Both the position numbers and the translations under genes were made by a program. 49,152 nucleotides of DNA, from positions 1-49,152 of IMG/VR virus record IMGVR_UViG_3300010885_012211, one strand, 5' to 3'. The notes under the pieces were generated by a model, which was not told where the DNA came from, did no database searches, and was given only the letters and a program-made list of their open reading frames with translations. Within the stretch, counting starts at the first letter, position 1; every line of letters starts with the position of its first letter. This document shows, in pieces, positions 21,659 to 48,455 of this stretch. Source of the stretch: a virus.

Positions 21659-24600
21659 ATGGCAGAAGAACAAAACCCACTTGAAGGATTACCACAAGGT
21701 GAATTTATTAGACCAGCAACTACAGACGTTAAAAACTATTTGCCTTTTAATAACCCTATAACTCCAGATGATGAGTTATATTCACCTACACCGGTAAGAC
21801 AACCTAGGTTAGCTAGACAAGGTTTACCAGGTAGATCAAGTAATATACAACAGTATGCTGTTAAAGATAAAGTAACTGCTTATCCTCCATTTGCTCCAAA
21901 TCAAATGCCTCAAAGCTTTAAAAGGGGAGATAGATATTCAGATCATCTTAATACAATGATCCAAAAGAGAGCTCAGAGCAGTATAGATTCAAATGTATAT
22001 GCTAAACCTTTTATGTATGATGCAACAGCATCTGGAGCTAACAAAGCAAGGTATAAAGCATATGGTCAAAAAACTTATGATAGAGTTGGATTTAATCCGG
22101 AAATAAATAATGAGGAAGTATTTAATGCTAATACATCTATGTTAGATGATTACATTAGAATGGGTACTCATGCATTTTTACCAATGCTTACTAATGGTCT
22201 ATTTGCTAATCCTAAAAGTTACGGAAAGCTGTTGTCTGGTGACATAGGACAGGATCTTAGTGAAGCTGAAGATTATGAAAATTATAACAATCTAGGTTAT
22301 TCAACTAAAGGTGGTGTATTTGGTTTTATAAATAACATGTTTAACAGTGTTGCTTATAGTGCGGGTATCATGATAGAAAGTACTGCTGAAATGGCTTTAC
22401 TAGGTGCTGTAGAAGGATCAATTGTAGGTCCTGAAGGTACTGTAGTTGGTGGTGCATTAGGTGGTGCAACTGGAGCTGTAAAAGGTTTATTCAGTTTACC
22501 AAAAGCATTATGGAACATGGGTAAGTTTGGAGGAGCCATGGTGAAAAATCTAGGTAATTTAGAAAGATTCAGTGCTGCCCAAAGATTGTTTAATACTGCT
22601 GCAAGAACTACTGTTAACTTTATTAATCCCATAGAAAATACTACAAGTGCATTAAAAGCTGCATATGGTGAAGCTAACAACTTAACTAACTTAGCAAGAG
22701 CATCAAAGTCAGCTGCTGGATTTTTTAGAGATGTAAGTTTTATAAATGCAGCATTTTCAGAAGGTAGACTTGAAGGAGGAATGGTTGAAAATAATGCTTA
22801 CAGATTAGGATATGATAGATTCTGGAAAGAAAATAATAGAGCCCCTAATGAACAAGAACAACTTGATTTAAGAAAAACAGCAAAGCTAGCAGGTTTTCAG
22901 GATACATGGAAAAACGGATTATTAGTAATGTATACTAATAAAATTGCTTTTCCTAATTTGTATAAAGGAAACATGCTTACCAGACTTACTAATAATGTTG
23001 CAAGAATAGGTGATGAGTTTGATATTATATATAAAGCAGCAAAAAGACAAGCAGTTAAAGCTGGTGAAGATGTAACTAAAAAAGTAGTTACAGAAGGTAC
23101 ATATGAAATTGCTGATTTTAATTTAAGAAATGCATTAAAAGGATTAATAAGACCAGGAAACTTGGGTAAAGCTTCTTTAAATTATTTCAAGACTAATTTA
23201 ATGGAAGGTACTCAAGAGGTTATGCAAGATGTTATTGCTAATGCAACTGAGAAGTATTATTTAGATGCTTACTTTGATCCGGCAAAACAAAACTTTGATT
23301 ACTCTATAGGTGCTCTTGGAGATGCTTTTGGTGCACAAGCTGGTGAAAGAGGCTTTGAAACATTTGCTTCTGGATTCTTTATGGGTATGATGTTAAAACC
23401 TTTTGGAGGAGCCGTACCTAGATATGCATCTATGATGTATACTAAAGCTACTAAAAGTGCAGAAGAGTATGAAACTTATATAAAAGAAAGATCTGAATAT
23501 GGAGAAAGAGTTGTAAAGGCACTTAACCGTATGGATCAAAATCCTGCAGACTTTTTAAATGACAGAAAAGTAAACTATGGTGTTGCTGCTAAATTATCTA
23601 AAATACATAATGATGATGACACTACTACTAAAGAACATAAAGATGCAGTACAAGTAGGTTTTTCTTCAGATGTTTTAACTGCATTATCTTCTGGAACTTT
23701 TGATATTTGGAAAAAGAACTTTAGTAGGTTTAAACAATTAAATGAGAAAGAGTTAGAACAAGCTTTTGAGTTGGAGCCAGGTGAAGGTGGTAAAGCTAAA
23801 AAGATGCTTGATGATTATCTTAAGAAAGCTGATAAGCTTCAAGAGAGATATAACTATGGAATGAAAACATTTGGCAGTAAAATGGTAGATGTTAGTAAAT
23901 TAAAAAAGGGTACACCTGAGCATGATAAAGCTACCATTTACAATTTAGCTCTTGACAGAAGTATTAAGAATATGATATTTATGCAGGACTCTTTTGATAA
24001 TAATCTTGAGAGACTTGCTAAAATGTACAAAACTTGGTCTCCTTTAGATCCAAATGCAAAACTTCCAGGATTTGATTTTCAAACCTTAACTGACCCATCA
24101 CTACTCAATAACACTATAGATATGCTAAGTGCTGAACTTGAAGCATTAAAGCAATCTATGGAATCAACACAACCTAATTTAGTATTATCATCTAAAGTAG
24201 ATGATAAAGAAGAATTATTAAATACCCTAAAAGAATTCAGCAAAAGCCAACTTGACTTTTTTAAAGCTAGGTTTCAAAATGATGCATTTAATGAAGCAAG
24301 AAAGAAGTACATGGAAGAACAAAATCTTTCTGAAGGTGATGCTGAGTTAAAAGCATTTGATGAAATTGCAGGTCAGTATAAAAAATCTGGTGTTAATCCT
24401 GTAGATAATTTTAAATCAAGCTTTAGTAATTTATTAAAGAAGCTAGCCGGAAGTGATGTTAACTATCAAAAAATGTTAAATAGCTTAGGTAAAAGTAAAA
24501 GCTTTGATGATGTATTTAATGATCTAGTAGATATACATGAGTTGAGTTATGAAAATTCAGTAATGACTCCTTACATAAACTTATTACTAGATACTGATGG

Positions 24601-27600
24601 TTTCTTTGAGCATGTCAATAGAAACTTTGAGTGGATGAGTAATTTATATAGTAATAAAAAAGAATACTATAAAGATGCTGTAAATAAGTCTATTGAGCTT
24701 AAAGAATATAATGACCTTTTAAAAAGTCTTTCTGATAAAAACATCTATGTAGATCTTGAGCAGTTTGCTGATTGGATGGAGGATAAAAACAATCTTCCTG
24801 ATTATTTTATTGATGCTACATCTGGTGCAGAAAGAATTGTGCCTAAAGGTAGTATGCTTTATGGTAAATATGTTGAAGAGTTTGAAAGAGTAACTAAGAT
24901 ACAAGAAGAAAAGCCAGCCGGAAACCCTGCAGATCTTAAAGGTCAAATGGAACAAGAGATTGAGGATTTAGAAGAAAAGAAACAAAAAGAGTTAGATGAT
25001 GCTGAGTTAAACTTCAAAAGAGACATTGAAGAAGAAAGAGGAGCACCACTTGAAAAGCTTAGAGAAACTGAAGCTGAAAGTACAAAAGAAACTACTGTTG
25101 AATCAGAACAAGATCCAACTCAAGCTGTCTTAGATAAATTTCAAGAAGCAATACAATTAGTTGAGTCAGAAGATATAAATGATGTATTTAATGCATACAA
25201 TGTTATCTGGAAAAACTCATTAATAGATATTGATCAATTTAATGGTGATGTAAAAAAATATGAAAAGTTCTTTAATCAAAGAGCTAGAAAAATATTAGAT
25301 GACAAAAAGAGAATGGCAGAAGAAATAATGCCATTAGCTGAGTCATATGATTGGTCTGATGAAAATGAAAAAATCATGGCAGCTGTAAATAATGCAGTTG
25401 TTATGGATATTGTTAATGAAGAAATTGAAAAAGCAAAACAAGAAACAGTAAAAACAGTTCAATCAGAACCGGTTGTACTTGTTGAAAATTCTGAGTCATG
25501 GAAAGATTACCAAGCGGTAATCAAAGCAATAGAAGAAAACTATGATAAACTTATCAAACAAGTAACAAAAAAATATGCGGAGCAAGGTCTACAACCAGAA
25601 GGAGTAGAAAAAATTACTATTAATACTGAGTGGGATAGTATTCCTGATGAGAAATTCAAAAGTAGATTAACAAAACTTTTTGATACATATCTTAAAGGAA
25701 GAGGTCAAGAGAACTTACTTGCAGAAGATCCTGATGAATATGCTAGACTAAGAGGTAACTGGTTCAGAGAACAAGGTGATCTTATTGATGAGTATAATGC
25801 AAATACTGCGGCTAAAGCTATTAAGAAAGAAAGAGAAGCTACTATGCTTATTGAACCAACTCTTAAATACTTTGAGTCTGATGGAGACATGGTTTCTAAA
25901 CCACTAAATTATCTTAATAAAATTCTAGACGGTTTATTAGCAGTTGATGAGTTAGGAATGAAACTAAATAAAAAGAAAGAAGTAGTTCCATTAACTAAAA
26001 AAGAAAAAGAGAATTTAAAAAATGATATAGCAGCAATTGAAGAACTTATAGAAAAGAAAAGAAACATTGCTACACCTATATCTAACTTTGAAAAAAGCTA
26101 TAATATATTTACTCAAAATATTCTTGATAGACAAAAAGAAGTTGAGCAAATACTTGATGCTGAAGGTAATGTTGAATCTAGAGTACTAGATGGTAAAACA
26201 CCTGAAAGGGTGACAAATATTGCAGAGGCAATTGACATTGAGTTAACCCCGGGTAAAAAACCATACGTATACTCTCCACTTGAAGATAAAACTAAAGATG
26301 TATTTGATGATGAGGGTAATGTAATTGACCAAAAATTTATACCATCACCAGTATTAGAAATATTTAATTTAATTAATGATGATGACTCAATAAAACCTGA
26401 AGCTAAAGCAGATAAGTTTGTTGAGAAGTTTTTGCAATTAAAGTATCCTGCATTTGAGGAAACTACAAAGAATAAGATTACCGGTAAAAAAGTTGAAAAC
26501 CCTAAAAATGAAGCACTTAGAAAAGCTTTAAAAGAAGACTTTTCAAGAGAAAATGTAATTAAAACTATTCAAAATTTATCATCTAAAGAATCATCTGATG
26601 TTGGTAATACAATGGATGTTCTTATAAAAGAATTTTTGACTAGAGAAGGTACAGGTTGGAAAAAACTAACCAAACCGGATAACATGACACAAGAAGTCTT
26701 TGATAACTTGTTTGGTACCAGAGGTATTATAACTAGATTTAGAGATGGAATTATTGATGGAAAATATATGATTGTAGGTGCCAGTACACTTGTGTTTGAT
26801 AAAACATTAGGTGAAAGGGGTATTGCAGGTGAGACAGATTTAATTGCTATTGATGACCAGGGTAATTTTAATATTATTGATGTTAAAGCATTAACTAATG
26901 ATAAATGGAAAGCTTTTGATGGTGATATAAGATTAAAAGAAAGAATAGATGAATTAACAAAAGAAGGTAAGTCTCAAGATGAAATAGATAATGATGCTAA
27001 AGTTATTGAAGCTAAAAAAGATGCCTTTAAAAGTAAAAAGAAATACTTTAGTTTACAGCAGTCTATTTATAGAAACCTATTCTTTAATATGACAGGAATC
27101 ATGCCTAAAGAAATTGGATTATTACCAATAGAAGTAGAGTATGATAAACTAGGTAATATAGTAAGTGCAAAACTGTCAAACTTAGTACCAGAAGATTTTA
27201 GTACTATTGAGCTTAAGTATATGCCGGAAGTAGAGACTAGAGTTCCTTTAAAGGCTGCTCCAATTGCTAAAGCTCCTACAACTACCCAACCTACTGAAGC
27301 TAAAGAAGAAGATGTTTATCAAGTAACTAAACCTAAGTCAAATAAACTTTCTAATAACATTGGACAAACTGTAGTATATCAAGGAGAAATAGGTAAACTC
27401 ATTCTTAATGCTGATGGAACATATGGTGTGCAGTTACCAAACAATATTATTAAAACTCTAACCTTTAATATCAAAGATATAATAGATGGTAAAACTACAT
27501 TTGATCAAGCTGGTGTTCTTCCTGTACAGTTAATTACTAACTACGGTCAGATCACAAAGATTGATGGTACTGAGATGAATGCTGAGTTTTTAAATGATGA

Positions 27601-29206
27601 GGAAACTAAAGCTGTAGTAAATGGAGTAATGTATACAGTTAATAGAAATGAACTTGGTAACATAGAATCATTAACATATGAATCTAATGCTAAAGACATT
27701 GCTGATATACAAGAAAAAATATCTGACCTTGATGAGGAGTTAGCTAAATTAAAAGAAGAATCAGTTACACTTACATCAGAAGATAAGTACAATCAACTAC
27801 AAACTAGAGTTCAAGAATTAACAAATGCTATTGCTAATACAGAAAATGAGGATGTAAAACAAAGACTTACAAAAAAGAGAATTGTTATTTCTAGTCAGTT
27901 TGCACAAATGAAAAATGCACAAAATGCAAATGTTAGAAAAATAGCACAATTAGAAATTGAAACTAAGTCTCTTGAAACAAAGCTTAAAAATTTAGAAGCA
28001 AGTAATTATATAAGAACACTAACAGGCGGTAATGCTGATAATATAATCTTTGCACTCAATGCATTGCCAAATAGTTTCCAAAAGAAAACTGCTAATTTAA
28101 AACCTAAAGATCAAGAAACAATCCTTAAAGAAATTTCTAGATTATCTGTAGCACCTTCTACTTCAGAAAGTATAGATGAAATCTTTGAAGACATGCCTTA
28201 CTCAGTTGATAGATTGTGGGCAGGTGGAATTAATGCAATTAATGAAGCTGACTTAGCTGAAATTAAAACTTGGACAAATTCTGCAATTCAGAAATTAAAT
28301 GATTTAGCTTCTGTGTTATTAAATAAAGGAGATTTAATTGATGATGTTACAAATCAAGTCAATGCAATTAATAATTTTGTAAGCCAGTTAAGCTTAATTA
28401 AACTAAATAAAGATGGAAAAATCAGCAAAAAGCAACCAAAAGAAGCAAGAGAAGCCTTCAGCCCTGAGACCAGCACTACTACATCTAAGGATGAAGTCAC
28501 TGCCAGTGGACAGGCAGAGGGAGCTACTGGACAAGATACAGGAGTTAAACCAACACAAGAGCAAATGAAAGCAGCCCTTCGGGGTATAAATGCATCTGCA
28601 GATGAGTTACTTGAAGGAATAACAACTGAAGAAGGTGAGGCTGAGTCAATTGATAAGACAGCAGAGTTTGTATCTGCAATGAATGAAGCTAAATCAGACA
28701 AAGAGTTAGATAAAATTTACTATGAAGCATTAAAAGAAATTGATGAAAATCCAGCTGTTGGAACATCAAGTGTAATTATAGATGCTTATAAGAAAGCTAG
28801 AACTAAATTAGCTATTGAATTATCTGCAGAAAATGCTAAAAATGATGGTTATGTTATTGTAAAAGATGATAACTTTGAGTACTCAAGAAAAGGAACTATT
28901 TGGAATTTTGGTGGGGTTAATAAAGATGGTTCTGTTGTACTAAAAAGTATTTCTGGAACAGAATTACTAACAGTTACAGAAGAAGAATTACAAAAATATT
29001 TTGGTAGAATAAATGAAGAATCTATGGCACAAGCTGATGTTGAAGTCACACAAGAAGATCAAGAACTTGCAAATGCTACTACAAAAACAGTAGAAGAAGC
29101 ATTAGCAGATTCAACAGTATTAAGAAATGCTGAAAAAGAAGTAAATGAAGCTCAACAAAAAGGTAGCTTTAGAGATAAGTTGAAAAACAGAAAATGTAAT
29201 ATTTAA
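21659..29206 (+). CDS. Giant virion cargo protein with PD-(D/E)XK nuclease-like domain
   Basis: A 2,515-residue protein. After a Pro-rich start come two or three hydrophobic Gly/Ala-rich stretches (about 218-300, 'GAVEGSIVGPEGTVVGGALGG') that could insert in a membrane, then helical regions and a charged coiled coil (about 1094-1180). Residues about 1650-1810 look like a RecB/Cas4-type nuclease: 'GIAGETDLIAIDDQGNFNIIDVKA' gives Asp1727, Asp1741 and Lys1743, and 'LQQSIYRNL' gives the following QxxxY (Gln1800, Tyr1804). A long coiled coil lies at about 2012-2116 and a small beta domain at about 2400-2450. It ends KCNI. Family knowledge predicts DNA cleavage if the core is intact; the substrate is unknown. 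It precedes the RNAP gene by 3 bases and is probably packaged and ejected with it. Confidence 0.65.
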   Translation: MAEEQNPLEGLPQGEFIRPATTDVKNYLPFNNPITPDDELYSPTPVRQPRLARQGLPGRSSNIQQYAVKDKVTAYPPFAPNQMPQSFKRGDRYSDHLNTMIQKRAQSSIDSNVYAKPFMYDATASGANKARYKAYGQKTYDRVGFNPEINNEEVFNANTSMLDDYIRMGTHAFLPMLTNGLFANPKSYGKLLSGDIGQDLSEAEDYENYNNLGYSTKGGVFGFINNMFNSVAYSAGIMIESTAEMALLGAVEGSIVGPEGTVVGGALGGATGAVKGLFSLPKALWNMGKFGGAMVKNLGNLERFSAAQRLFNTAARTTVNFINPIENTTSALKAAYGEANNLTNLARASKSAAGFFRDVSFINAAFSEGRLEGGMVENNAYRLGYDRFWKENNRAPNEQEQLDLRKTAKLAGFQDTWKNGLLVMYTNKIAFPNLYKGNMLTRLTNNVARIGDEFDIIYKAAKRQAVKAGEDVTKKVVTEGTYEIADFNLRNALKGLIRPGNLGKASLNYFKTNLMEGTQEVMQDVIANATEKYYLDAYFDPAKQNFDYSIGALGDAFGAQAGERGFETFASGFFMGMMLKPFGGAVPRYASMMYTKATKSAEEYETYIKERSEYGERVVKALNRMDQNPADFLNDRKVNYGVAAKLSKIHNDDDTTTKEHKDAVQVGFSSDVLTALSSGTFDIWKKNFSRFKQLNEKELEQAFELEPGEGGKAKKMLDDYLKKADKLQERYNYGMKTFGSKMVDVSKLKKGTPEHDKATIYNLALDRSIKNMIFMQDSFDNNLERLAKMYKTWSPLDPNAKLPGFDFQTLTDPSLLNNTIDMLSAELEALKQSMESTQPNLVLSSKVDDKEELLNTLKEFSKSQLDFFKARFQNDAFNEARKKYMEEQNLSEGDAELKAFDEIAGQYKKSGVNPVDNFKSSFSNLLKKLAGSDVNYQKMLNSLGKSKSFDDVFNDLVDIHELSYENSVMTPYINLLLDTDGFFEHVNRNFEWMSNLYSNKKEYYKDAVNKSIELKEYNDLLKSLSDKNIYVDLEQFADWMEDKNNLPDYFIDATSGAERIVPKGSMLYGKYVEEFERVTKIQEEKPAGNPADLKGQMEQEIEDLEEKKQKELDDAELNFKRDIEEERGAPLEKLRETEAESTKETTVESEQDPTQAVLDKFQEAIQLVESEDINDVFNAYNVIWKNSLIDIDQFNGDVKKYEKFFNQRARKILDDKKRMAEEIMPLAESYDWSDENEKIMAAVNNAVVMDIVNEEIEKAKQETVKTVQSEPVVLVENSESWKDYQAVIKAIEENYDKLIKQVTKKYAEQGLQPEGVEKITINTEWDSIPDEKFKSRLTKLFDTYLKGRGQENLLAEDPDEYARLRGNWFREQGDLIDEYNANTAAKAIKKEREATMLIEPTLKYFESDGDMVSKPLNYLNKILDGLLAVDELGMKLNKKKEVVPLTKKEKENLKNDIAAIEELIEKKRNIATPISNFEKSYNIFTQNILDRQKEVEQILDAEGNVESRVLDGKTPERVTNIAEAIDIELTPGKKPYVYSPLEDKTKDVFDDEGNVIDQKFIPSPVLEIFNLINDDDSIKPEAKADKFVEKFLQLKYPAFEETTKNKITGKKVENPKNEALRKALKEDFSRENVIKTIQNLSSKESSDVGNTMDVLIKEFLTREGTGWKKLTKPDNMTQEVFDNLFGTRGIITRFRDGIIDGKYMIVGASTLVFDKTLGERGIAGETDLIAIDDQGNFNIIDVKALTNDKWKAFDGDIRLKERIDELTKEGKSQDEIDNDAKVIEAKKDAFKSKKKYFSLQQSIYRNLFFNMTGIMPKEIGLLPIEVEYDKLGNIVSAKLSNLVPEDFSTIELKYMPEVETRVPLKAAPIAKAPTTTQPTEAKEEDVYQVTKPKSNKLSNNIGQTVVYQGEIGKLILNADGTYGVQLPNNIIKTLTFNIKDIIDGKTTFDQAGVLPVQLITNYGQITKIDGTEMNAEFLNDEETKAVVNGVMYTVNRNELGNIESLTYESNAKDIADIQEKISDLDEELAKLKEESVTLTSEDKYNQLQTRVQELTNAIANTENEDVKQRLTKKRIVISSQFAQMKNAQNANVRKIAQLEIETKSLETKLKNLEASNYIRTLTGGNADNIIFALNALPNSFQKKTANLKPKDQETILKEISRLSVAPSTSESIDEIFEDMPYSVDRLWAGGINAINEADLAEIKTWTNSAIQKLNDLASVLLNKGDLIDDVTNQVNAINNFVSQLSLIKLNKDGKISKKQPKEAREAFSPETSTTTSKDEVTASGQAEGATGQDTGVKPTQEQMKAALRGINASADELLEGITTEEGEAESIDKTAEFVSAMNEAKSDKELDKIYYEALKEIDENPAVGTSSVIIDAYKKARTKLAIELSAENAKNDGYVIVKDDNFEYSRKGTIWNFGGVNKDGSVVLKSISGTELLTVTEEELQKYFGRINEESMAQADVEVTQEDQELANATTKTVEEALADSTVLRNAEKEVNEAQQKGSFRDKLKNRKCNI

Positions 29207-29209
29207 GAA

Positions 29210-39919: not shown

Positions 39920-41109
39920 TGGCTTGTATAGCAAAAGAAAATGCAATTAATTACTTAATTAAACATGGTGGTACTGATGATGTTAGAAAAGTAATTAACT
40001 ATCAGAAGTTTGATGAAATCAATAATAAGCTGACTGGTATAGCTGAAGATAAGTATGGTCTTAAGACTAATGGTAATAAACTATTTACTATTCAGTATGA
40101 AGCTATTAATTACATAGCAGATACTCCAACATACAGAGAAAATAAATATACTGTACCAAGAGCTATTCCTAATGACATTCTTTTTGAAGAGTTAGATAGA
40201 CTGATCAGAATTCATGATATGAAAAAAGATCAAGGTCTGAATCCTCCGGAGCAACCTATGATGATGAGGCAACCTACTCCAGAAGTAGATTATAAATTAA
40301 AACTTATTAATGGTCTAAATAAGATAAGTAGAAATAAATTTGAACCGGAGAAACTACAAGGCTGGTTAAATGACCTTCAAAAGCAAGGAGTTCCTGCACA
40401 GCAATTAGAGATATTTAAAAATGTTGCTAAACCAGGAATGACTAAAGATGAAATAGCTGTAGCTATTGCTGCTAATTATAGTTATACTGTTGATATTAAT
40501 ATTGCTACTGAACTTATTAAAAGTGCTAATGTAGCATATGATACATTTACTTTAAATGGTGATGATTATTCTAAAATAGATACTTATAGAAAAAATGGTA
40601 ATGTAATAACTAAAGAAGAATATAATTTAGCTACTGAGCAATATAAAAAAACTGAAAATTTAGGAAATAGAAATACTCAATACTACTCTAACTTATCAGT
40701 ACCAGGAGGTACTAATTATACAGAACAAGAAATAGCTACACCAGAAATTACTCCTTCTATTAAAGGACATGCTGAGTTTGCTACAGAACAAGGTATAGGT
40801 TGGTTTAGAAGTGATGAAAAAGATGCCACAAAAATAGAAAGAAAAGATTTAGGTACTTTTAATGTAGAAAATGATATTTATACACAAAAGTTTGATGCTG
40901 AAAAAATAGAAACTACTTATTATAAAAATAATAATTTAATATCTAAAGAAGAATATACTAAATCTAGGTTAAAACAACCTGAATTTAAAACTCGTAGAAT
41001 ACTAGAAGTACAATCTGATATTTTCCAAAAGTCAAGAGATATTAAAAGTGCAGAAGATATATATGCTGAAATAAAAAAATCAGGTGATTTAATTGTAGAT
41101 TGTGGATAA
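39919..41109 (+). CDS. N-terminal part of a split polyvalent cargo protein
   Basis: A 396-residue protein starting MAC. Residues 1-100 are helical ('AINYLIKHGGTDDVRKVINYQKF...'); the rest contains 'LNKISRNKF...LQGWLNDLQKQGVPAQQLEIFKNV' and, near 285-375, 'GHAEFATEQGIGWFRSDE' and 'RRILEVQSDIFQKSRD'. I associate these last motifs with large polyvalent phage proteins in which they are followed by 'NQFLQLLNKDNNW', and that continuation is found instead at residue 197 of the 2,232-residue gene 1.2 kb downstream. The gene therefore looks like the front of a protein separated from its back by the GIY-YIG gene and a kinase domain. It ends 'SGDLIVDCG', which resembles a natural end more than a random stop. 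Function unknown. Confidence 0.55.
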   Translation: MACIAKENAINYLIKHGGTDDVRKVINYQKFDEINNKLTGIAEDKYGLKTNGNKLFTIQYEAINYIADTPTYRENKYTVPRAIPNDILFEELDRLIRIHDMKKDQGLNPPEQPMMMRQPTPEVDYKLKLINGLNKISRNKFEPEKLQGWLNDLQKQGVPAQQLEIFKNVAKPGMTKDEIAVAIAANYSYTVDINIATELIKSANVAYDTFTLNGDDYSKIDTYRKNGNVITKEEYNLATEQYKKTENLGNRNTQYYSNLSVPGGTNYTEQEIATPEITPSIKGHAEFATEQGIGWFRSDEKDATKIERKDLGTFNVENDIYTQKFDAEKIETTYYKNNNLISKEEYTKSRLKQPEFKTRRILEVQSDIFQKSRDIKSAEDIYAEIKKSGDLIVDCG

Positions 41110-41124
41110 ATATATTGAAATTTA

Positions 41125-41156
41125 TTTGGTAAATCAGAATGTATTTTGTATCTTTG
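41125..41156 (+). promoter_or_regulatory. Bacteroidota-type promoter of the GIY-YIG gene
   Basis: TTTG (41125-41128), a 20-base spacer, then TATCTTTG (41149-41156) matches the Bacteroidota primary-sigma consensus TTTG / TAnnTTTG with the preferred spacing. The predicted start point falls at or within a few bases of ATG41161, so the mRNA would be leaderless or nearly so. It is the only full match to this consensus I found upstream of a gene in the window. Confidence 0.75.
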
Positions 41157-41160
41157 TATT

Positions 41161-41754
41161 ATGAAAGCACCAGATTATAAAGGAAGTTGTATATATGTAA
41201 TTAAGAACAATATAAATGAAAAATGTTATATTGGTTCAGCATATCATTTTAATAATAGAAAATATGCTCATGATTGGAAATTAAGAAAAGGTATTCATGT
41301 AAATACTATTTTACAAAATTTTGTAAACAAGTATGGAGTAGATAGTTTATATATAGAAATATTAGAAAAAGTAGAAGATGCTATTGAACTTATAAAAAGA
41401 GAACAATGGTATATAGATAATCATAATTCTGAATTTAATATTCTAAAAATTGCAGGAACAGATTATCATATTGAAAGAAAAAGAAAAGATGAAACTAAAA
41501 AATTGATTTCAGATAGTAGAAAAGATTTTAAATATACAGATGAAAGTAAAAAGAAAATGTCTGAAACAAGGATTAGAAAAATAGCAGAAGGACAACTTAA
41601 TAGTAAACTAACTGCTGAACAAGTAAAAGAAATTAAAACTTTTTTGAAAGAAGGTAAAAAAGGTAGAGATTTAGCTTTACAATTTAACGTAAAACCATCA
41701 CAAATTTCTAATATTAAAAAAGAAAGATGTTGGACTAATATAACAATAGATTAA
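41161..41754 (+). CDS. GIY-YIG homing endonuclease with NUMOD3-like and HTH parts
   Basis: A 197-residue free-standing endonuclease. Residues 8-26 'GSCIYVIKNNINEKCYIGS' form the GIY-YIG core (Tyr12, Tyr23), followed by Arg33, His37 and Glu81 in 'REQWYID', the expected catalytic set, and 'FNI' near 92-94. Residues about 125-140 'YTDESKKKMSETR' look like a NUMOD3 DNA-binding motif, and the C-terminus 'LTAEQVKEIKTFLKEG...ALQFNVKPSQISNIKK' is a helix-turn-helix. An in-frame TTG at 41146 would add five codons but lies inside the promoter -7 region, so ATG41161 is preferred. It lies between two halves of an apparently split cargo gene and carries a host-type promoter, as expected of a selfish gene. 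It probably cuts the uninterrupted locus of related phages. Confidence 0.85.
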   Translation: MKAPDYKGSCIYVIKNNINEKCYIGSAYHFNNRKYAHDWKLRKGIHVNTILQNFVNKYGVDSLYIEILEKVEDAIELIKREQWYIDNHNSEFNILKIAGTDYHIERKRKDETKKLISDSRKDFKYTDESKKKMSETRIRKIAEGQLNSKLTAEQVKEIKTFLKEGKKGRDLALQFNVKPSQISNIKKERCWTNITID

Positions 41755-41756
41755 TT

Positions 41757-44700
41757 ATGGCATGTAAACACATATATAAAGGAATAACTTATAACTCGAA
41801 AGAAGAGTTTATTGAAAAAGTTATAAATCCTCAATTAAAAACTTTAGCTAAAGATAATTCAAAAAAAGTTATTTTACCTATTGGTACTTCTGGTAGTGGC
41901 AAATCCACTTGGATTAAGTCTTTACCTAAAGATAAATATACTATTATTTCACCTGATGAAATGAGGGTAGAATTTACAGGTAATATGGATGATAAATCTA
42001 AAGATAAAGAAATATATGAAGCTGTAAAAGAAAGAACTATAAAAGCTGTAAATAGTGGTAAACAAGTAATTATTGATACTACTAATCTTCAAAAAGAAAG
42101 AAGAAGAGATTTTTTAAATGCTGTAAAAAAAGCAATACCTGATGTAAGTTTAGAGTATAAGTTATTAGAGTTAAATCCAGAACTTGCTAAACAAAGAATT
42201 AAAGCACAAATAGAAAGAGGTGAAAATAGGGCAAATGTACCTGATAGTACAATAGATAGGCATGCTTTATTATATAAAGAAATGTTAGAAGATATTAAAG
42301 AAGAACCTTTAACACCTTTTAATTCTACTGATAACTCTCCTCAGAATCAGTTTCTCCAACTTCTAAACAAAGATAATAACTGGGTAACATTTTTTGTTAA
42401 ATCTATTATACAAGGTAGTGCTAAGAAAGGTTATGAGAAAGTATTATTTCCTAGTGGCAATACAGCTAGTAAAGTTCAAGGTCATACTACTTTAGAAGAG
42501 TTTAAAAAAGGAAAAGAAGACAGGATTAAAGAACTTGAGAAAGAAAATCAAGAACTTAAAAATAAAAAATTAGATCTTGAAGTTGAAAAAGCTTATGCAT
42601 CTTTATTTGAACCAATAACACAAGAACAATTTGATAAAACAAATAAAAATCAAATTGAAAGTAATAATAGAGAAATAAATCAACTTAAAGAAGAACTTAA
42701 AAGAGTAGAGGGACCAGAAGGTTTTGTTGCTCTTAGACCTATTTATAACTTTTATGAAAATACTGTAGCTAATGTTCTTAAAAAACAAGGATATAATCCT
42801 GTATTAATTACAGATGAGTATGGTAATACTTGGTATGAAGTTACTATAGAAGAAAATAGAGATCTTGCTCCTATTGCATTTATGAAAGAAACTGCAGATA
42901 TGTTTGCAGAGATTCCGGAAATTGAAATAAATATCCAATCATTAAATAATCAAAGAGCAAAAGAAGCAGCAAATGCATTAGCCAATAAGATTGCTACAGC
43001 ACTTAATGTAAGTTTTAGAAATATAACAGCTGAAGAAGCTAAAAATATTTTAAAAGATAGAGTGATTGGTTACAAAGGTGAACCAGCATTTTATTTTGCG
43101 GGGACTGTATATATAGTAGGAGATAATATAAACATGCATACTGTACTGCATGAGTTTTCTCATCCTCTATTACAAGCTATAAAAAAGGATAATCCGGAAT
43201 TGTTTAATAAACTTTATGATCAGTTAGCTGGCACTGGAGAAGGAGAAGGTATAAAAGACTATGTAAGAAAAAACTATCCGGAATTAAAAGAAGATACAGA
43301 CTTATTTAAAGAAGAGTGTCTTGCATTTGCATTACAATTAAAAGCTGTAAATAAAGTTACCGGTCAAGCTGAAACTCAAGGGTTTATAGACTTTATTAAA
43401 AACTTATTATACTCAATTAAACAAGCAGTTAAAAAAATCTTTAATATCAAGCAAGGTGTTACTGATATAAATGTTGATACTACTATTGAAAAACTAGCTG
43501 AGAAACTATTAGGAGAAGAGTTTGATCTCAAAATACCTAAAGTAACTGCACAAGACATGGAGATGTTTGCCAGATTCAATATTGAAAGTGTTAAACAACT
43601 TATAGAGAATGCATCTGTAAAATCCATTAATGAAATAATTAATAGATTATATCAAGCAGATCTTGAAATTATTACAAAAGCTGAAAACTTTGTTGGAGAT
43701 AAAGCATCTCAAAAAATCATTAGAGAAAGTATTTTTAACCAGGGAACAACAGAGTTAGCTAAAGGTATTAAGAAATCACTTAAAGGTTATCAAACAGTAA
43801 CAACTACACAACAAGCTACTGTAGAAGAAAAAATAAACAATGCATTAGAAGCTGAGAAAAGAAGACTTGAGGACCTTAATAATAAAGCAGTATCACTTGT
43901 AACATCTTTAGGTCTTACAGATGAGATGCTAAAAAATATTGTAAATGAGTTAACACTATTACAAAAAGGTAACTACACTAATCCACATAAAGTTGCAGTA
44001 ATTAATTTATTTAAAGGCATAGCCAGAAGATTATATCAAACAACTTCAGATATTGATCAGGTATTAAAGAAAGACTTTTCATTTGATACTAGTAACCCAT
44101 TGGCACAGATGCTTAATGAAATTACTAGAAATGCAATTAGAGCTGAAGAACTAGTAAGAGAGATGAGCAAAGAGATTACTACATCTAAGCTTGTTGAAAT
44201 TACCGGGTATATGACTCAGTTTGTAGAAGATGAGATGAAATCTGATTTAGGTAATATACTTAAGAACATACTTAATGAAGAAGAGTTTAACACTTTTGTT
44301 GATAAAATCATAAATCAACAAGTTACTGATGCTGACATAAATCAAGTAATAGCTAAAGACCCTACTGGTAAGATTGAAAGTAAGTATATCAATAAATTTA
44401 TTGGTAGATACAATCAGTATATACTAAATGCTCCAAAAATAAGAGCAGTACTTGAAGGTAAAACAAGAGATGTTAGCCCACTTAATAGATTTTTAGAGAG
44501 TTACTCAAGCAGTAATAATCCTATAATTGGTGGTATCAGTACTTGGATAGAAGAGCAAAAGACTGAATCAGAGCAAAGAGTTTGGAAAAGAGCAATGGAT
44601 TTTAAAGTTCAATTGGAAACTTTATTGCCGGCAGTTGGATTTAGCAAAAGCAATACTAGACAATTACTAGACATGCTTACTTTTGAAGATGAAGTAGTAG

Positions 44701-47700
44701 GTTATAATAAAAAAACAGGTCAAATTGAAAGAAGAAAAGTTCATACTTTTTTAAATCCTCACGGTAATGGTTGGAGATATGAGTTAGACTCAAGAGAGTT
44801 TGCTGTCTTTGAAGCTAGAAGAAATGGTGATGAAGCTGCAGTAAAAGCTGCAGAAACTGAACTTAGAAACTTCAAAAGAAACTACATGTTTGATGAGTAT
44901 GTTCCTGAGTATTATGAAAAGGATGAAATCTTTAAAAAATATCCACTTGGTGATGAAGCTTGGTTAGATAAAAAATTAGCACTTGACACATTTGCAGCAG
45001 AACAAAATAAACTGCATAATGAAACTGAAAGGTTTGAGAATTATTCACAAGTTCAAGAAGCTTGGAGAAAGTATCAACAGTTATATTCTTTGAGATATGA
45101 AGATGGTACAATGAAAACCGGTAATGATCTTGAAAAAGCTAAGATACTAATAGAGTATAGAAATACTACAAGAGATTATTATGAGTTTGTACCTATCAAG
45201 GGTTCATTACAAACTGCTTATAATGAATTTGTAAATCTTAAAAAAGCACAAGGTTTATCCGGTGAAGAACTAGATATTGCTGTAAAAAAATGGATTAAGC
45301 AAAATACAAAAATACTTTACTCAGAAGAGTACTATAAAGATAAGTCAAGACTATTAACTAGATTAAGAGAGCTACAAAGAAAAATAAATGAGTCAGCAAG
45401 TACTGAGTTTAATCCTTCAGATGCTTTTGATGAAATCTTTGATTTGATTAATTCATATAGAGATGAACAAGGTCAACCAATGGCAACTTTATTATCTAAA
45501 GATAAGCTTACTAAAATTAAACAGTTACAACAAGAAGTAAATAACTATAGACGGGCGGTAGATAAACAAACTGGTTTGTCAAGTGACTTACTTGATGAGT
45601 TAAATACTTTTATTAAAAGACACAAACAGGGAGAGACACTTTCTCCGGAAGAACAAAAAAGATATTTATATCTTAGTGACTTATCATCTGAATCTGGATT
45701 GTCTGCACATGAATTAGCAGAGTTTGATAATATACTAAATGAGTTGGGTAACTTAAGTACTAAAATACCTACTGATTATTATATGGATGAACTTAACTTT
45801 AATTTGTCAAAACACAATATTAAAGCTAAAACAGAAGATGAAGTTGATGATTATATTAATTCAGAAGAATTTAGAGAGTTAGTAAAGTCAGATGATAACT
45901 TCTTTAGCTGGTTTAAACTAAATCATGTCAATAAGAAAGTATACGTAAAAGGTAAAGGTCTTGTGACTAAACAAGAAAGAACATTTGCTAACTCAGTATC
46001 TGTACCTAAAGATCCTAGTCATATTATAACTACTGAAATTGTTGACTCTGAAACCGGTAAAACAATAGTGATTAATGGTGTGCCTAACTCAAGACACTCA
46101 TTCTTCAAAGTAAAAGATAAGTATAGAACTATTCCATTTGGTCTTACTAAAGAAGAAAAAGCTAAATACATAGGAACTGTTATAGATAACAAAGGAAACT
46201 ATTTACCTAGACCTCATAATCCAGGTCAGAAAAATAGTGCGGTAGATGCTAAGTTTGTTAATCAAAGATACATGGATCTTAAACTTGCAAATAATGCTCA
46301 GTTTAAACTTCTAGAAGCTACTACAAAATGGCATTTACAGACTCAAGATGGTAAGTCTAATTACAGTAAGTTGTATATGGACATGCCAAGATTTGCTATT
46401 AAAGGTGTAGTAGAAGCATTTCAAGCAGGTAAGTATGGAGAAAAAGCCGGACAAATTAAAGAGAGTGTAAGTGAGTGGTGGAAACAAAAGTTTGGAAGAT
46501 CTGTGCAAGATTCTGAAAATGAATTTAATTATAATGCAGAAAATAACTTAGTTAATACTGATTTGAACGGAGATGAGATTACTTATATACCTGTTCAAGG
46601 TCTGTATAAATTAGATCCAAAAGCTGTCAATCCAGATGTAATGGAGAATATATTAAAGTATGCACTGTCTGTAGAAGAACAGTCACAGCTTTATAAAACA
46701 TTACCTCTTATTGAAACTATGTTAGATACATTAGCTGATAAAGATGCTCAGCCAAAAAACATGGAGGCATACAGTAGAAACTTAAAAGCAGTGTTTAATG
46801 AGTTAAGAAATCCAAATAAAAAGTTTGGAACTAATAATCTACTAGGACAATTACAAAGTTTAGTACAAAGAGAATACTATGGAGTGAAAAACTCTGATGT
46901 ATCAGAACAATATCCTAAGTTGACTAAATTTTTAGGTGCTCTACAAGGTTTATCAGCACAAGCTTCATTAGCTGTTAATTTATCATCAGATTTAAAAAAC
47001 CAGTATGCTGGTTATGTACAGTTGATTATTGAAGCTGCCGGAGCTGAATTTGTAAACATGAAAGATTTAGCAGTAGGCCGCGGGTTTTCATTTAAAACAA
47101 TGTTAAACTGGTCTAGCTTTGGTAGCAAAGGAATCTATGCAGTAGGTCCCGGAGAATTAAATGTACAACTTGTAGAAATGTTTGATCCGGCCTTTAAAGC
47201 TAAAGATAACTTTGGTAAAAGTATTTCAAGACATATATGGAAAGATCTCATTAATGGTGAATGGAAATATATGCATAGAAAGTTTGGTGAACTTGAGGTG
47301 GCTTTAACATTATTTGGCTCTATGTTAAATGCTGAAAAAGTAGAACAAGTATTACCTGATGGAACTGTAAAAGTATTACATTACCAAGATGCATGGGAAA
47401 AAGGACCGGATGGTGTTGTTAAACTTAAACAAGGAATTCACCCTTCATGGAGTAATCAAACTGTTAAACATGTTTTTGAAGGTGGTCAAAAGCTTACTGA
47501 TATTGCTAAAATGTATGGAGTAACTGTACAGGAGATTAAAAAACTCAACAGCATAAAAGATGAAGTTGATTTAAATGATGGTCAGGAAATCATAATAGCA
47601 AACTCTGAAAGATTTAAATTATTCAAAAGAAAAGTTCAAGGTCTTTCTAGAGCTCTATTTGGTGCTTATGATGAATTTGGTCAACCTGAAGGAAATAAAT

Positions 47701-48455
47701 ATTTGATGTACCGCATGTTCTTCTTTATGAGAAAATGGTTTACACCAATGTTTGTAAATAGATTTGGTATTGATATGGATAAAGAAAATAATCCATATGG
47801 TGAAAGATATGATTGGGCATTAGGAAGAACTAGAAAAGGCTTTTACATTCAAGCATTTCAAACATTATTTGAAGGTATGAAAACCCTAGGTAAAAGCTTT
47901 AAGTATATGAGTAAAAAAGAAAAAGTAGCTTTGAGAAAACTTGCTGCTGAAGGTACTACAATTATTATGTTCTCAGTATTAGCATCAATGTTGTTTGGTT
48001 ATGATGATGATGATGAAGAAAAATGGAATAAAATCAGAGAAAGATCCGGTGTAATTGGATCTGATGAGTTTAATACATGGGGCTTTATGCAAAATCATAT
48101 GTTAGCACTTATGTTAGGTTTACAAGCAGAGACATCAGCTTTTGTACCATTACCAAAAATTGCAGGAATAAATTTTGGAGCAGATGATTATGCAAACATC
48201 CTTACATCAACAACTACATCATTCGGTAATACCTTATTATTATATTTGGAAATACTATCAGATGTACTTAATTTAGTTACCTTTAATGATCTTTCAGTAT
48301 ATAAGAAAGAAGCAGGACCATACTCTTGGGAAGAAAAAGATGATTACAAAATAGTAAATCACTTATTAAGAACAGTGGGTGTTACAGGTTCTACTGGAGA
48401 TCCAGAAACTATAGTTAAAAATTTAAGAAATAGCGCAAGCAGAATTGGTAGGTAA
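41757..48455 (+). CDS. Giant polyvalent cargo protein: kinase, zincin, LysM, hydrophobic C-terminus
   Basis: A 2,232-residue protein starting MACKHIYKG. Residues about 38-185 are a P-loop kinase of the polynucleotide kinase/zeta type: Walker A GTSGSGKST (43-51), SPDEMR (65-70), IIDTTNL (105-111) and 'RANVP...IDRH'. From 197, 'NQFLQLLNKDNNWVTFF' begins a polyvalent-protein region with a coiled coil (about 250-320). A zincin domain has HEFSH (465-469) and Glu519/520, followed by an amphipathic helix like that after the zincin in the RNAP protein. After a long helical body, residues about 1904-1950 form a LysM repeat ('GGQKLTDIAKMYGVTVQEIKKLN'). Hydrophobic stretches lie at about 2066-2085 and 2147-2180. 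Likely ejected; LysM and hydrophobic parts suggest envelope contact. Enzyme activities are inferred from motifs. Confidence 0.7.
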   Translation: MACKHIYKGITYNSKEEFIEKVINPQLKTLAKDNSKKVILPIGTSGSGKSTWIKSLPKDKYTIISPDEMRVEFTGNMDDKSKDKEIYEAVKERTIKAVNSGKQVIIDTTNLQKERRRDFLNAVKKAIPDVSLEYKLLELNPELAKQRIKAQIERGENRANVPDSTIDRHALLYKEMLEDIKEEPLTPFNSTDNSPQNQFLQLLNKDNNWVTFFVKSIIQGSAKKGYEKVLFPSGNTASKVQGHTTLEEFKKGKEDRIKELEKENQELKNKKLDLEVEKAYASLFEPITQEQFDKTNKNQIESNNREINQLKEELKRVEGPEGFVALRPIYNFYENTVANVLKKQGYNPVLITDEYGNTWYEVTIEENRDLAPIAFMKETADMFAEIPEIEINIQSLNNQRAKEAANALANKIATALNVSFRNITAEEAKNILKDRVIGYKGEPAFYFAGTVYIVGDNINMHTVLHEFSHPLLQAIKKDNPELFNKLYDQLAGTGEGEGIKDYVRKNYPELKEDTDLFKEECLAFALQLKAVNKVTGQAETQGFIDFIKNLLYSIKQAVKKIFNIKQGVTDINVDTTIEKLAEKLLGEEFDLKIPKVTAQDMEMFARFNIESVKQLIENASVKSINEIINRLYQADLEIITKAENFVGDKASQKIIRESIFNQGTTELAKGIKKSLKGYQTVTTTQQATVEEKINNALEAEKRRLEDLNNKAVSLVTSLGLTDEMLKNIVNELTLLQKGNYTNPHKVAVINLFKGIARRLYQTTSDIDQVLKKDFSFDTSNPLAQMLNEITRNAIRAEELVREMSKEITTSKLVEITGYMTQFVEDEMKSDLGNILKNILNEEEFNTFVDKIINQQVTDADINQVIAKDPTGKIESKYINKFIGRYNQYILNAPKIRAVLEGKTRDVSPLNRFLESYSSSNNPIIGGISTWIEEQKTESEQRVWKRAMDFKVQLETLLPAVGFSKSNTRQLLDMLTFEDEVVGYNKKTGQIERRKVHTFLNPHGNGWRYELDSREFAVFEARRNGDEAAVKAAETELRNFKRNYMFDEYVPEYYEKDEIFKKYPLGDEAWLDKKLALDTFAAEQNKLHNETERFENYSQVQEAWRKYQQLYSLRYEDGTMKTGNDLEKAKILIEYRNTTRDYYEFVPIKGSLQTAYNEFVNLKKAQGLSGEELDIAVKKWIKQNTKILYSEEYYKDKSRLLTRLRELQRKINESASTEFNPSDAFDEIFDLINSYRDEQGQPMATLLSKDKLTKIKQLQQEVNNYRRAVDKQTGLSSDLLDELNTFIKRHKQGETLSPEEQKRYLYLSDLSSESGLSAHELAEFDNILNELGNLSTKIPTDYYMDELNFNLSKHNIKAKTEDEVDDYINSEEFRELVKSDDNFFSWFKLNHVNKKVYVKGKGLVTKQERTFANSVSVPKDPSHIITTEIVDSETGKTIVINGVPNSRHSFFKVKDKYRTIPFGLTKEEKAKYIGTVIDNKGNYLPRPHNPGQKNSAVDAKFVNQRYMDLKLANNAQFKLLEATTKWHLQTQDGKSNYSKLYMDMPRFAIKGVVEAFQAGKYGEKAGQIKESVSEWWKQKFGRSVQDSENEFNYNAENNLVNTDLNGDEITYIPVQGLYKLDPKAVNPDVMENILKYALSVEEQSQLYKTLPLIETMLDTLADKDAQPKNMEAYSRNLKAVFNELRNPNKKFGTNNLLGQLQSLVQREYYGVKNSDVSEQYPKLTKFLGALQGLSAQASLAVNLSSDLKNQYAGYVQLIIEAAGAEFVNMKDLAVGRGFSFKTMLNWSSFGSKGIYAVGPGELNVQLVEMFDPAFKAKDNFGKSISRHIWKDLINGEWKYMHRKFGELEVALTLFGSMLNAEKVEQVLPDGTVKVLHYQDAWEKGPDGVVKLKQGIHPSWSNQTVKHVFEGGQKLTDIAKMYGVTVQEIKKLNSIKDEVDLNDGQEIIIANSERFKLFKRKVQGLSRALFGAYDEFGQPEGNKYLMYRMFFFMRKWFTPMFVNRFGIDMDKENNPYGERYDWALGRTRKGFYIQAFQTLFEGMKTLGKSFKYMSKKEKVALRKLAAEGTTIIMFSVLASMLFGYDDDDEEKWNKIRERSGVIGSDEFNTWGFMQNHMLALMLGLQAETSAFVPLPKIAGINFGADDYANILTSTTTSFGNTLLLYLEILSDVLNLVTFNDLSVYKKEAGPYSWEEKDDYKIVNHLLRTVGVTGSTGDPETIVKNLRNSASRIGR

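What the first reader, a model, noticed from the sequence alone, without database searches (positions are those of the whole stretch)
21659..48455. A packaged set of enzyme domains around the virion RNA polymerase
Seen: four giant/large ORFs covering 26 kb carry, besides DFDID, a nuclease-like core (D1727, D1741xK1743), two zincin motifs (HEAWH, HEFSH), a SLOG-like Rossmann domain, a Walker A kinase and a LysM repeat. Known: crAss-like phages eject a DFDxD RNAP, and 'polyvalent' phage proteins carry conflict enzymes into the host. Inference: this phage delivers a combined transcription and counter-defence payload at the moment of DNA entry. The specific combination may be undescribed.
Basis: partly seen in the sequence, partly recalled or inferred. 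Interest (0 to 1): 0.75.

Follow-up and report, generated by a model that had tools for sequence, protein, structure and literature searches.

The report
Cysteine-riveted chain of injected phage proteins
The giant proteins that a crAss-like phage packs with its RNA polymerase contain almost no cysteine except one at each end where two proteins would meet, a pattern that disappears when the genes are fused and appears when they are split, so these proteins are probably joined end to end by disulfide bonds into one thread that is pulled into the bacterium.

Summary
The motifs are real. P1 carries a RecB/Cas4-type nuclease. P2 carries a SLOG module, a zincin and the DFDID polymerase. P5 carries a kinase, a zincin and LysM. 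Zincins, polymerase and nuclease are conserved core. SLOG and kinase are exchangeable modules in fixed slots. Delivery fits virion proteomics of relatives; 'counter-defence' is untested.

The surprise is a cysteine code. P1 (2515 aa) has one Cys, at 2513; P2 (3569 aa) has two, at 3 and 3567; P3 (396 aa) has two, at 3 and 395; P5 starts MAC. Across Crassvirales, Cys marks both sides of every P1|P2|P5 junction. Fused junctions lack it (102/103 and 117/119 polymerase ORFs agree), and a 5642-aa triple fusion has none. Extra split-off ORFs carry Cys at both ends. The homing element, shared at 96% DNA identity with a divergent phage, brings its own Cys-ended caps.

Best explanation: head-to-tail disulfides join the ejected proteins into one thread, released by reduction in the cytoplasm. 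The pattern is shown; the bond is inferred.

The parts
21659..29206 (+). P1: first link of the chain, 2515 aa, homologue of crAss001 gp47 / phi14:2 gp67 type proteins; sole Cys at aa 2513
26426..27358 (+). P1 aa 1590-1900: PD-(D/E)XK nuclease of RecB/Cas4 type (D1727, D1741xK1743, Q1800xxxY1804)
   Evidence: pLDDT 83; top Foldseek hits AdnA, Exo5, RecE, Cas4 family; best E 3.5e-3, weak
29195..29197 (+). P1 C-terminal junction Cys2513 codon
29210..39919 (+). P2: virion RNA polymerase giant protein, 3569 aa; only Cys at aa 3 and 3567
29216..29218 (+). P2 N-terminal junction Cys3 codon (MAC)
31067..31765 (+). Slot A (P2 aa ~620-852): variable insertion site, here filled with a cpYpsA-type SLOG module
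32042..32389 (+). P2 zincin metallopeptidase region (HEAWH aa 986-990, EE..AE aa 1024-1029), conserved core, homologous to the zincin at the C-end of crAss001 gp47
35927..37369 (+). P2 aa 2240-2720: RNA polymerase catalytic core with DFDID (36773-36787)
39293..39349 (+). Slot B (P2 aa ~3362-3380): empty here; in relatives holds SLOG, kinase, 2OG-Fe(II) oxygenase, DprA-like or NADAR-like modules
39908..39910 (+). P2 C-terminal junction Cys3567 codon
39919..41109 (+). P3: N-terminal fragment of the third giant protein, 396 aa; only Cys at aa 3 (39925-39927) and aa 395 (41101-41103)
40987..41846 (+). Mobile homing element: Cys-ended C-cap of P3 + GIY-YIG gene + Cys-bearing N-cap of P5; 96% identical to L213 5231-6090, flanks 70% and 79%
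41161..41754 (+). GIY-YIG homing endonuclease (ORF 41146-41754 opens with TTG; first ATG at 41161)
41757..48455 (+). P5: C-terminal fragment of the third giant protein, 2232 aa; junction Cys3 (41763-41765) plus one internal Cys521; no Cys at the C-end
41868..42326 (+). P5 aa 38-190: P-loop polynucleotide-kinase-like module (AAA_33 / PNKP), mobile between slots and proteins
43149..43163 (+). P5 zincin motif HEFSH (aa 465-469); HExxH present in 73/73 homologues
47493..47597 (+). P5 LysM repeat (aa 1913-1947)

Best explanation
The region encodes the ejected transcription complex of a crAss-like phage. Its giant proteins form one ordered chain, P1 (nuclease), P2 (zincin and RNA polymerase), P5 (zincin). 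Each polypeptide is almost free of cysteine except for a single cysteine at every end that faces another link. These cysteines most likely form head-to-tail disulfides (P1 C-end to P2 N-end, P2 C-end to the N-end of the third protein; in this phage also P3 C-end to P5 N-end). The separate proteins would then travel through the narrow portal and tail as one continuous, partly unfolded thread in fixed order, and reduction in the host cytoplasm would release them. Where two genes are fused a peptide bond does this job and the cysteines are absent; where a gene is split they are present. Accessory enzyme modules (SLOG, kinase, others) are inserted and exchanged at a few slots, mostly near the junctions. 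A GIY-YIG homing element splits the third gene here and carries its own cysteine-ended caps, so that the broken protein can be re-joined without splicing. Shown: the cysteine pattern, its dependence on fusion state, the slots, the mobile element. Inferred: the disulfide, its head-to-tail pairing, and its role in ejection.
For: Window chain proteins: seven Cys in 8712 aa, six of them at junction ends. 60 non-redundant IMG/VR relatives: P1 C-end Cys 45/45, P2 N-end 50/51, P2 C-end 53/54, P5 N-end 52/53, P5 C-end 0/30; only 20 internal Cys in 371,878 aa. Named phages: phi14:2 gp67 has its only Cys at 1797/1797, gp66 at 3 and 2179/2180, gp65 at 3; crAss001 gp47 has its only Cys at 2339/2341, gp50 at 5, 1334 and 2404/2412, gp49 at 5. 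Fusion tests: P1P2 fusions keep only the C-end Cys (Fpv3 sole Cys 4286/4287); P2P5 fusions keep only the N-end Cys; a P1P2P5 fusion of 5642 aa has none. Agreement is 102/103 and 117/119 RNAP ORFs. Prediction confirmed: extra ORFs between P2 and P5 have Cys only at residue 3 and the last residue, and the same module inside P2 or P5 lacks them. The homing element carries both Cys caps in two divergent phages. Order and strand of the genes do not matter. Control ORFs of the same genomes have 0.96% Cys and 5-7% terminal Cys. Disulfides exist in crAss001 virions.
Against: No direct evidence for the bond. Assembly happens in a reducing cytoplasm, so the bond would have to form late or with help. The Bayfield study does not report linked peptides from these proteins. 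Some breaks lack a Cys pair: L042 P1, L050 P2, L057 and L045 third gene, and L143 and L175; several look like frameshifts or introns, but this was not proved. Gut crassviruses keep more internal Cys (0.12%). C1 cargo of some phages also has a terminal Cys without an obvious partner. Sequences are related: only about five independent changes on the P1|P2 side and one on the P2|P5 side.
Confidence: 0.72

Rival explanations
1. Ordinary crAss-like virion RNA polymerase complex with polyvalent-type conflict enzymes; the terminal cysteines have no role in joining the chains.
For: Homology to known virion RNAP proteins; zincin, PDDEXK, SLOG, kinase, NADAR and AlkB-like modules resemble polyvalent protein content (PMC5512222).
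Against: Does not account for terminal Cys that follow gene fission and fusion. No defence-system match.
Confidence: 0.1
2. The terminal cysteines bind something other than each other, for example a shared metal ion, the portal or C1/C2 cargo, or a thiol partner during packaging, at each chain end.
For: One Cys per end; C1 cargo in p-crAssphage also has a lone terminal Cys.
Against: Cys occur strictly on both sides of a junction, never on the outer ends of the chain (P1 N-end 0/8, P5 C-end 0/100), and vanish in pairs on fusion.
Confidence: 0.12
3. The chain proteins are ligated by peptide-bond chemistry that uses Cys (intein-like trans-splicing or an enzyme), not by disulfides.
For: Cys at the start of the downstream protein resembles a +1 Cys extein residue; crAss-like phages are rich in inteins and introns (PMC7886860).
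Against: No intein or group I/II intron match was found in the window (Pfam, Rfam); Cys is also needed on the upstream side; the Cys position varies (residue 3-6 at the start, last residue to about 10 in at the end).
Confidence: 0.04
4. Relics of a polyprotein cut by the resident zincins, with Cys near old cleavage sites.
For: Zincins lie near slots; processing by zincins is proposed for polyvalent proteins.
Against: The ends are true gene starts and stops, on different strands in several phages; fused versions lack Cys at the junction.
Confidence: 0.01
5. Chance or an annotation or assembly artefact.
For: A few broken genes do not follow the rule.
Against: Per-end rates of 98-100% against 5-7% in control ORFs of the same genomes; independent blind set; the same split in L213.
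Confidence: 0.01

Closest known systems
crAss-like phage virion RNA polymerase complex (phi14:2 gp65/gp66/gp67; crAss001 gp47/gp49/gp50)
   Same: Homologous DFDxD polymerase, nuclease-bearing P1 and third giant protein; packaged in virions by mass spectrometry; follows Ring/muzzle genes
   Different: The window's clade has longer proteins, the P1|P2 cut lies before the zincin instead of after it, and the third gene is split by a GIY-YIG element. The junction-cysteine rule holds in both but was not found described in the papers available to me
N4 (Schitoviridae) virion RNA polymerase gp50
   Same: Giant ejected polymerase purged of cysteine: 3500 aa, zero Cys. Published reason: passage through tail and periplasm (PMC3715699, PMC3915230)
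   Different: N4 uses one polypeptide, so it has no junction. Crassviruses purge cysteine but keep one at each junction. The polymerase folds are unrelated
Polyvalent proteins of phages and conjugative elements (Iyer et al. 2017, PMC5512222)
   Same: Large delivered proteins with zincins and exchangeable enzyme domains
   Different: Here modules sit in a few fixed slots of a conserved RNA polymerase complex and move between two different proteins of one chain; no ArdC-N or DdrB-ParB type domain was detected in the window
Homing elements that spare their host gene (self-splicing introns, inteins)
   Same: A mobile homing endonuclease sits inside an essential-looking gene without apparent loss of the product
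   Different: No intron or intein was found. The element ends one ORF and starts another, and both new ends carry a cysteine; re-joining by disulfide is my inference

Membership tests
Crassvirales (crAss-like phage) | Ring 1, Ring 2 and muzzle proteins in the structural block | tested here: met
   PF24228 6.7e-11, PF25702 1.6e-23, PF25731 8.3e-23
Crassvirales (crAss-like phage) | Giant transcription-block protein with DxDxD motif homologous to known crAss-like RNAP | tested here: met
   DFDID aa 2522 invariant in 49 homologues; tblastn to phi14:2 g066 3e-19
Crassvirales (crAss-like phage) | MCP, TerL, portal, IHF signature genes | not tested
   Window is a 49-kb fragment that starts after these genes
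Virion RNA polymerase complex | Proteins are inside the virion | not testable with these tools
   Only by homology: crAss001 gp47, gp49, gp50 and phi14:2 gp65-gp67 detected by MS
PD-(D/E)XK nuclease, RecB/Cas4 type (P1) | D, DxK and QxxxY catalytic residues on the expected fold | tested here: met
   Residues invariant in 26 sequences; AF2 model pLDDT 83; Foldseek hits to AdnA, Exo5, RecE, Cas4 at E >= 3.5e-3, weak but consistent
Zincin metallopeptidase (P2, P5) | HExxH plus downstream acidic ligand helix, conserved | tested here: met
   P2: H986, E987, H990, E1024, E1025, A1028, E1029 invariant in 49/49; P5: HExxH in 73/73. Activity not tested; the AF2 model of the P2 slice was too weak for a fold match
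SLOG (cpYpsA) module (P2 slot A) | Match to a SLOG profile | tested here: met
   phrog_10774 3.5e-8; homologue L035 slot B hits PF12694 2.5e-10 and is 33.5% identical to the window module
Polyvalent proteins | Delivered multidomain protein with zincin and conflict domains | tested here: inconclusive
   Zincins and exchangeable modules present; no defence or conflict activity shown; PADLOC negative
Disulfide-joined protein chain (proposed) | Cys at both sides of every junction, absent from outer ends and from fused junctions | tested here: met
Disulfide-joined protein chain (proposed) | Actual inter-protein disulfide in virions | not testable with these tools
   Needs non-reducing gels or MS; predicted peptide masses
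Group I/II intron or intein (for the P3|P5 split) | Intron RNA or intein domains at the break | tested here: not met
   No Rfam match at gathering threshold in the window; no intein Pfam hit; P5 has its own start codon

The most novel reading that the evidence does not exclude
Crassviruses deliver their transcription machinery as a single disulfide-concatenated polypeptide thread of roughly 600-990 kDa (by summed masses) that is taken apart by the reducing host cytoplasm. Because any cut in the thread can be sealed by a terminal cysteine pair, the chain is freely re-segmented in evolution, takes up exchangeable enzyme modules at its slots, and tolerates a homing endonuclease that re-joins its host protein with its own cysteine caps instead of splicing.
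Probability: 0.6. Interest if true: 0.95.

Novelty: categorically new. Interest (0 to 1): 0.88.

Why it matters
How giant proteins pass through a phage tail too narrow for their folds is an open question, raised for both N4 and crAss001. A covalent but reversible head-to-tail link explains how three separate giant proteins could follow each other in order into one cell, and it yields exact testable predictions, including peptide masses that could be looked for in existing non-reduced mass-spectrometry data. It applies to the most abundant viruses of the human gut. The homing element that carries its own cysteine caps would be a way, other than introns and inteins, for a mobile element to live inside an essential gene. 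The slots give a map of which enzymes these phages exchange in their injected payload.

Tried and rejected
(1) PDB profile search with the RNAP core alignment: no meaningful hit; homology rests on tblastn to phi14:2 gp66, which is 6vr4.
(2) AF2 of P2 aa 640-1110 gave pLDDT 65; Foldseek hits were not informative for the zincin.
(3) Cys as an RNA or DNA junction motif or translational coupling signal: rejected because P1 lies on the opposite strand to P2 and P5 in crAss001, DAC15, cr116_1 and cr128_1 and the Cys position varies.
(4) Intron or intein at the P3|P5 split: no Rfam or Pfam support.
(5) Assembly artefact for that split: rejected because the same split occurs in L213.
(6) Defence link by PADLOC: nothing convincing.
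(7) Exact-pattern search for the P3 end in IMG/VR: no match.
(8) GIY-YIG relatives: only the L213 copy and one distant hit.
(9) Literature: no paper found that describes terminal cysteines in Crassvirales. Drobysheva et al. 2020 was not held, nor PMC5736458, the Yutin et al. 2018 paper.
Full report
WHAT IS THERE. The window is an IMG/VR record of 49,152 bases. It begins in the tail block of a crAss-like phage: Ring 2 (700-1362), Ring 1 (1362-2402) and muzzle (2405-7828) match Pfam crAss models. After four further large ORFs come the genes of the finding: P1 (21659-29206), P2 (29210-39919), P3 (39919-41109), a GIY-YIG homing endonuclease (41146-41754) and P5 (41757-48455).

CORE AND MODULES. 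Eighteen close and many distant relatives were fetched. In most relatives P3 and P5 are one ORF. A MAFFT alignment of 49 complete P2 proteins shows near-constant length from aa 852 to 3362, and two large variable slots: A (aa ~620-852, 6 to 427 residues) and B (aa ~3362-3380, 13 to 594 residues) (lengths). A third slot, C, lies between P3 aa ~95 and P5 aa ~400 (37 to 815 residues). The zincin motifs, DFDID and the P1 nuclease residues are core: HE[AS]WH 49/49, DxDxD 49/49, HExxH in P5 73/73, nuclease residues invariant in 26. The SLOG and kinase are slot modules. The window's slot-A SLOG is homologous to a slot-B module in L035 (33.5%, 1.7e-21), and its slot-C kinase is 63-64% identical to slot-B modules in L019 and L039. 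Other slot contents are 2OG-Fe(II) oxygenase with DUF7831, cpYpsA SLOG, a DprA-like protein and a weak NADAR match. A clear NADAR domain sits in the RNAP protein of the gut phage cr126_1. The kinase module was found in eight further loci at 66-74% identity, within different chain proteins.

THE CYSTEINE CODE. P1 (2515 aa) has one cysteine, at 2513. P2 (3569 aa) has two, at 3 and 3567. P3 (396 aa) has two, at 3 and 395. P5 (2232 aa) has two, at 3 and 521. In 60 non-redundant relatives the ends facing a junction carry Cys in 45/45 (P1 C-end), 50/51 (P2 N-end), 53/54 (P2 C-end) and 52/53 (P5 N-end), while the outer P5 C-end has 0/30; internal Cys number 20 in 371,878 residues. The isolates agree: phi14:2 gp67 1797/1797, gp66 3 and 2179/2180, gp65 3; crAss001 gp47 2339/2341, gp50 5, 1334 and 2404/2412, gp49 5. 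Other ORFs of the same 18 genomes have 0.96% Cys and terminal Cys in only 5% (N) and 7% (C).

NATURAL EXPERIMENTS. (i) Fusion of P1 and P2 (Suoliviridae, Fpv3): N-end without Cys, C-end with Cys; Fpv3 has a single Cys at 4286 of 4287. (ii) Fusion of P2 and P5 (Intestiviridae, including p-crAssphage): N-end with Cys, C-end without. (iii) Fusion of all three (L162, 5642 aa, homologous to P1, P2 and P5): no cysteine at all. (iv) Extra ORFs between P2 and P5 in L061, L065, L075, L076 and L096 have exactly two Cys, residue 3 and the last residue. I predicted this before looking. The same module fused to P2 (L063, L068-L070) or lying inside P2 (L023, L024) or P5 (L010, L036) has no junction Cys. (v) The P1|P2 cut lies before the zincin in the window's clade and after it in Steigviridae (homology of the two zincins: hhalign probability 99.1); both cuts carry the Cys pair. 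(vi) The GIY-YIG split described below. In a second set of 79 loci found only by the DxDxD pattern, polymerase ORFs fall into N+C+ 31, N-C+ 21, N+C- 5, N-C- 2, mostly with matching partners where these lie within the fetched stretch. With architecture labelled by homology or length, Cys state agrees in 102/103 (N side) and 117/119 (C side). With profile labels alone: P5-alone N-end 126/128 and C-end 0/100; P2P5 fusions N-end 6/6 and C-end 0/6; P1P2 fusions N-end 0/10; P1-alone C-end 10/10 and N-end 0/8. On a tree of 128 polymerase cores the P1|P2 architecture changes five times; four independent pairs are all concordant (sign test 0.125 on its own, too few pairs for significance); the P2|P5 side changes once. 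The case therefore rests on the exactness of the rule over many kinds of event, not on one test.

A HOMING ELEMENT WITH CYSTEINE CAPS. In the window the third gene is broken inside one slot-C domain, after the conserved 'RRILEVQSD.FQK.RD' segment (intact relative L040). P3 runs on to '...KSGDLIVDCG' and stops; after the GIY-YIG gene P5 starts 'MACKHIYKG...'. A divergent phage, L213, has the same arrangement: a 345-aa ORF with Cys 4 and 344 ending 'VDCG', a GIY-YIG gene 97% identical, and a 1903-aa ORF starting 'MACKHIYKG' whose only Cys is residue 3. DNA identity is 96% over 860 bases (window 40987-41846), dropping to 70% and 79% outside. The mobile unit thus includes the Cys-ended tail, the endonuclease and the Cys-bearing head. 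No intron or intein signature was found. The kinase is not part of this unit; L213 lacks it.

MECHANISM. Homologues of these proteins are in the virions of crAss001 and phi14:2. In crAss001 they must at least partly unfold to pass constrictions under 50 A (PMC10172136). N4-like phages have a giant ejected polymerase with no cysteine (N4 gp50: 0 in 3500), which published work ties to passage through the tail or periplasm (PMC3715699, PMC3915230). Crassviruses show the same purge but spare one cysteine at each junction. Disulfides between tail proteins are resolved in crAss001 virions, so thiols in the particle do oxidise. The simplest reading is a head-to-tail disulfide chain that keeps P1, P2 and P5 in single file, N-end of P1 first, and is cut by reduction in the cytoplasm. 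Thioredoxin-like genes lie near the polymerase block in several of these phages; this is suggestive only. The bond itself, the pairing partners and the effect on ejection are inferred.

The packaged enzyme set is real, and its delivery is likely by homology. Counter-defence remains a guess: PADLOC finds nothing convincing. The individual core domains are known for this phage group: PDDEXK in a transcription-block protein (PMC7886860) and zincin fusion (record annotation).

LIMITS. No wet-lab evidence. The 12-residue definition of an end was fixed on the first set and reused on the second. Exceptions (L042, L045, L050, L057, L143, L145, L175, L204) were inspected: some are Cys slightly further in (L145 Cys 20, L204 Cys 1380/1411), others are broken genes of unknown cause. 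C1 cargo with lone terminal Cys in three phages is unexplained. The original phi14:2 structure paper and Yutin et al. 2018 could not be read, so prior mention of the cysteines cannot be fully excluded.

Noticed in passing
L106 4700-7273 (p-crAssphage gp47), L109 4528-6801, L108 8102-9898: C1-type cargo proteins of some crassviruses have a lone Cys near one end (856/857; 747/757; residue 5) although no partner end is evident; perhaps self-pairing or a further link.
   Followed up: no
window 15619-18444 (Q3), aa 602-661: Eight Cys clustered within 60 residues (CxC pairs) in an otherwise Cys-free large structural protein; looks like a metal-binding or disulfide knot.
   Followed up: no
L042 13292-15073, L045 13325-14440, L056 13307-13831, L080 13502-15037: Slot B of the polymerase protein carries AlkB-like 2OG-Fe(II) oxygenase, DUF7831, a weak NADAR match or a DprA-like SLOG in different phages.
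   Followed up: partly
L117 17004-24212 (cr126_1): NADAR domain (1.7e-13) near the N-end of the RNA polymerase giant protein of a human gut crassvirus.
   Followed up: no
L205-L212: Polynucleotide-kinase-like module 66-74% identical to the window's, in eight crass-like loci whose other matches to the window are mostly far weaker, within several different chain proteins: a recently mobile module.
   Followed up: partly
L162 1022-17950: One 5642-aa ORF fusing all three chain proteins, with no cysteine at all.
   Followed up: yes
L106, L109, L111, L114, L103, L105: Thioredoxin or thiol-disulfide isomerase genes lie within a few kb of the RNA polymerase block in several crassviruses.
   Followed up: no
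L143 and L175: The two polymerase ORFs that break the cysteine rule; L175 also has an 871-aa ORF with Cys at 3 and 871 only.
   Followed up: partly
L102, L113, L115: In-frame stops in annotated genes (cr4_1, cr131_1, cr60_1), consistent with a recoded stop codon as known for some crassviruses; terminal Cys rule still holds, apart from the break inside the RNAP gene of cr131_1.
   Followed up: partly
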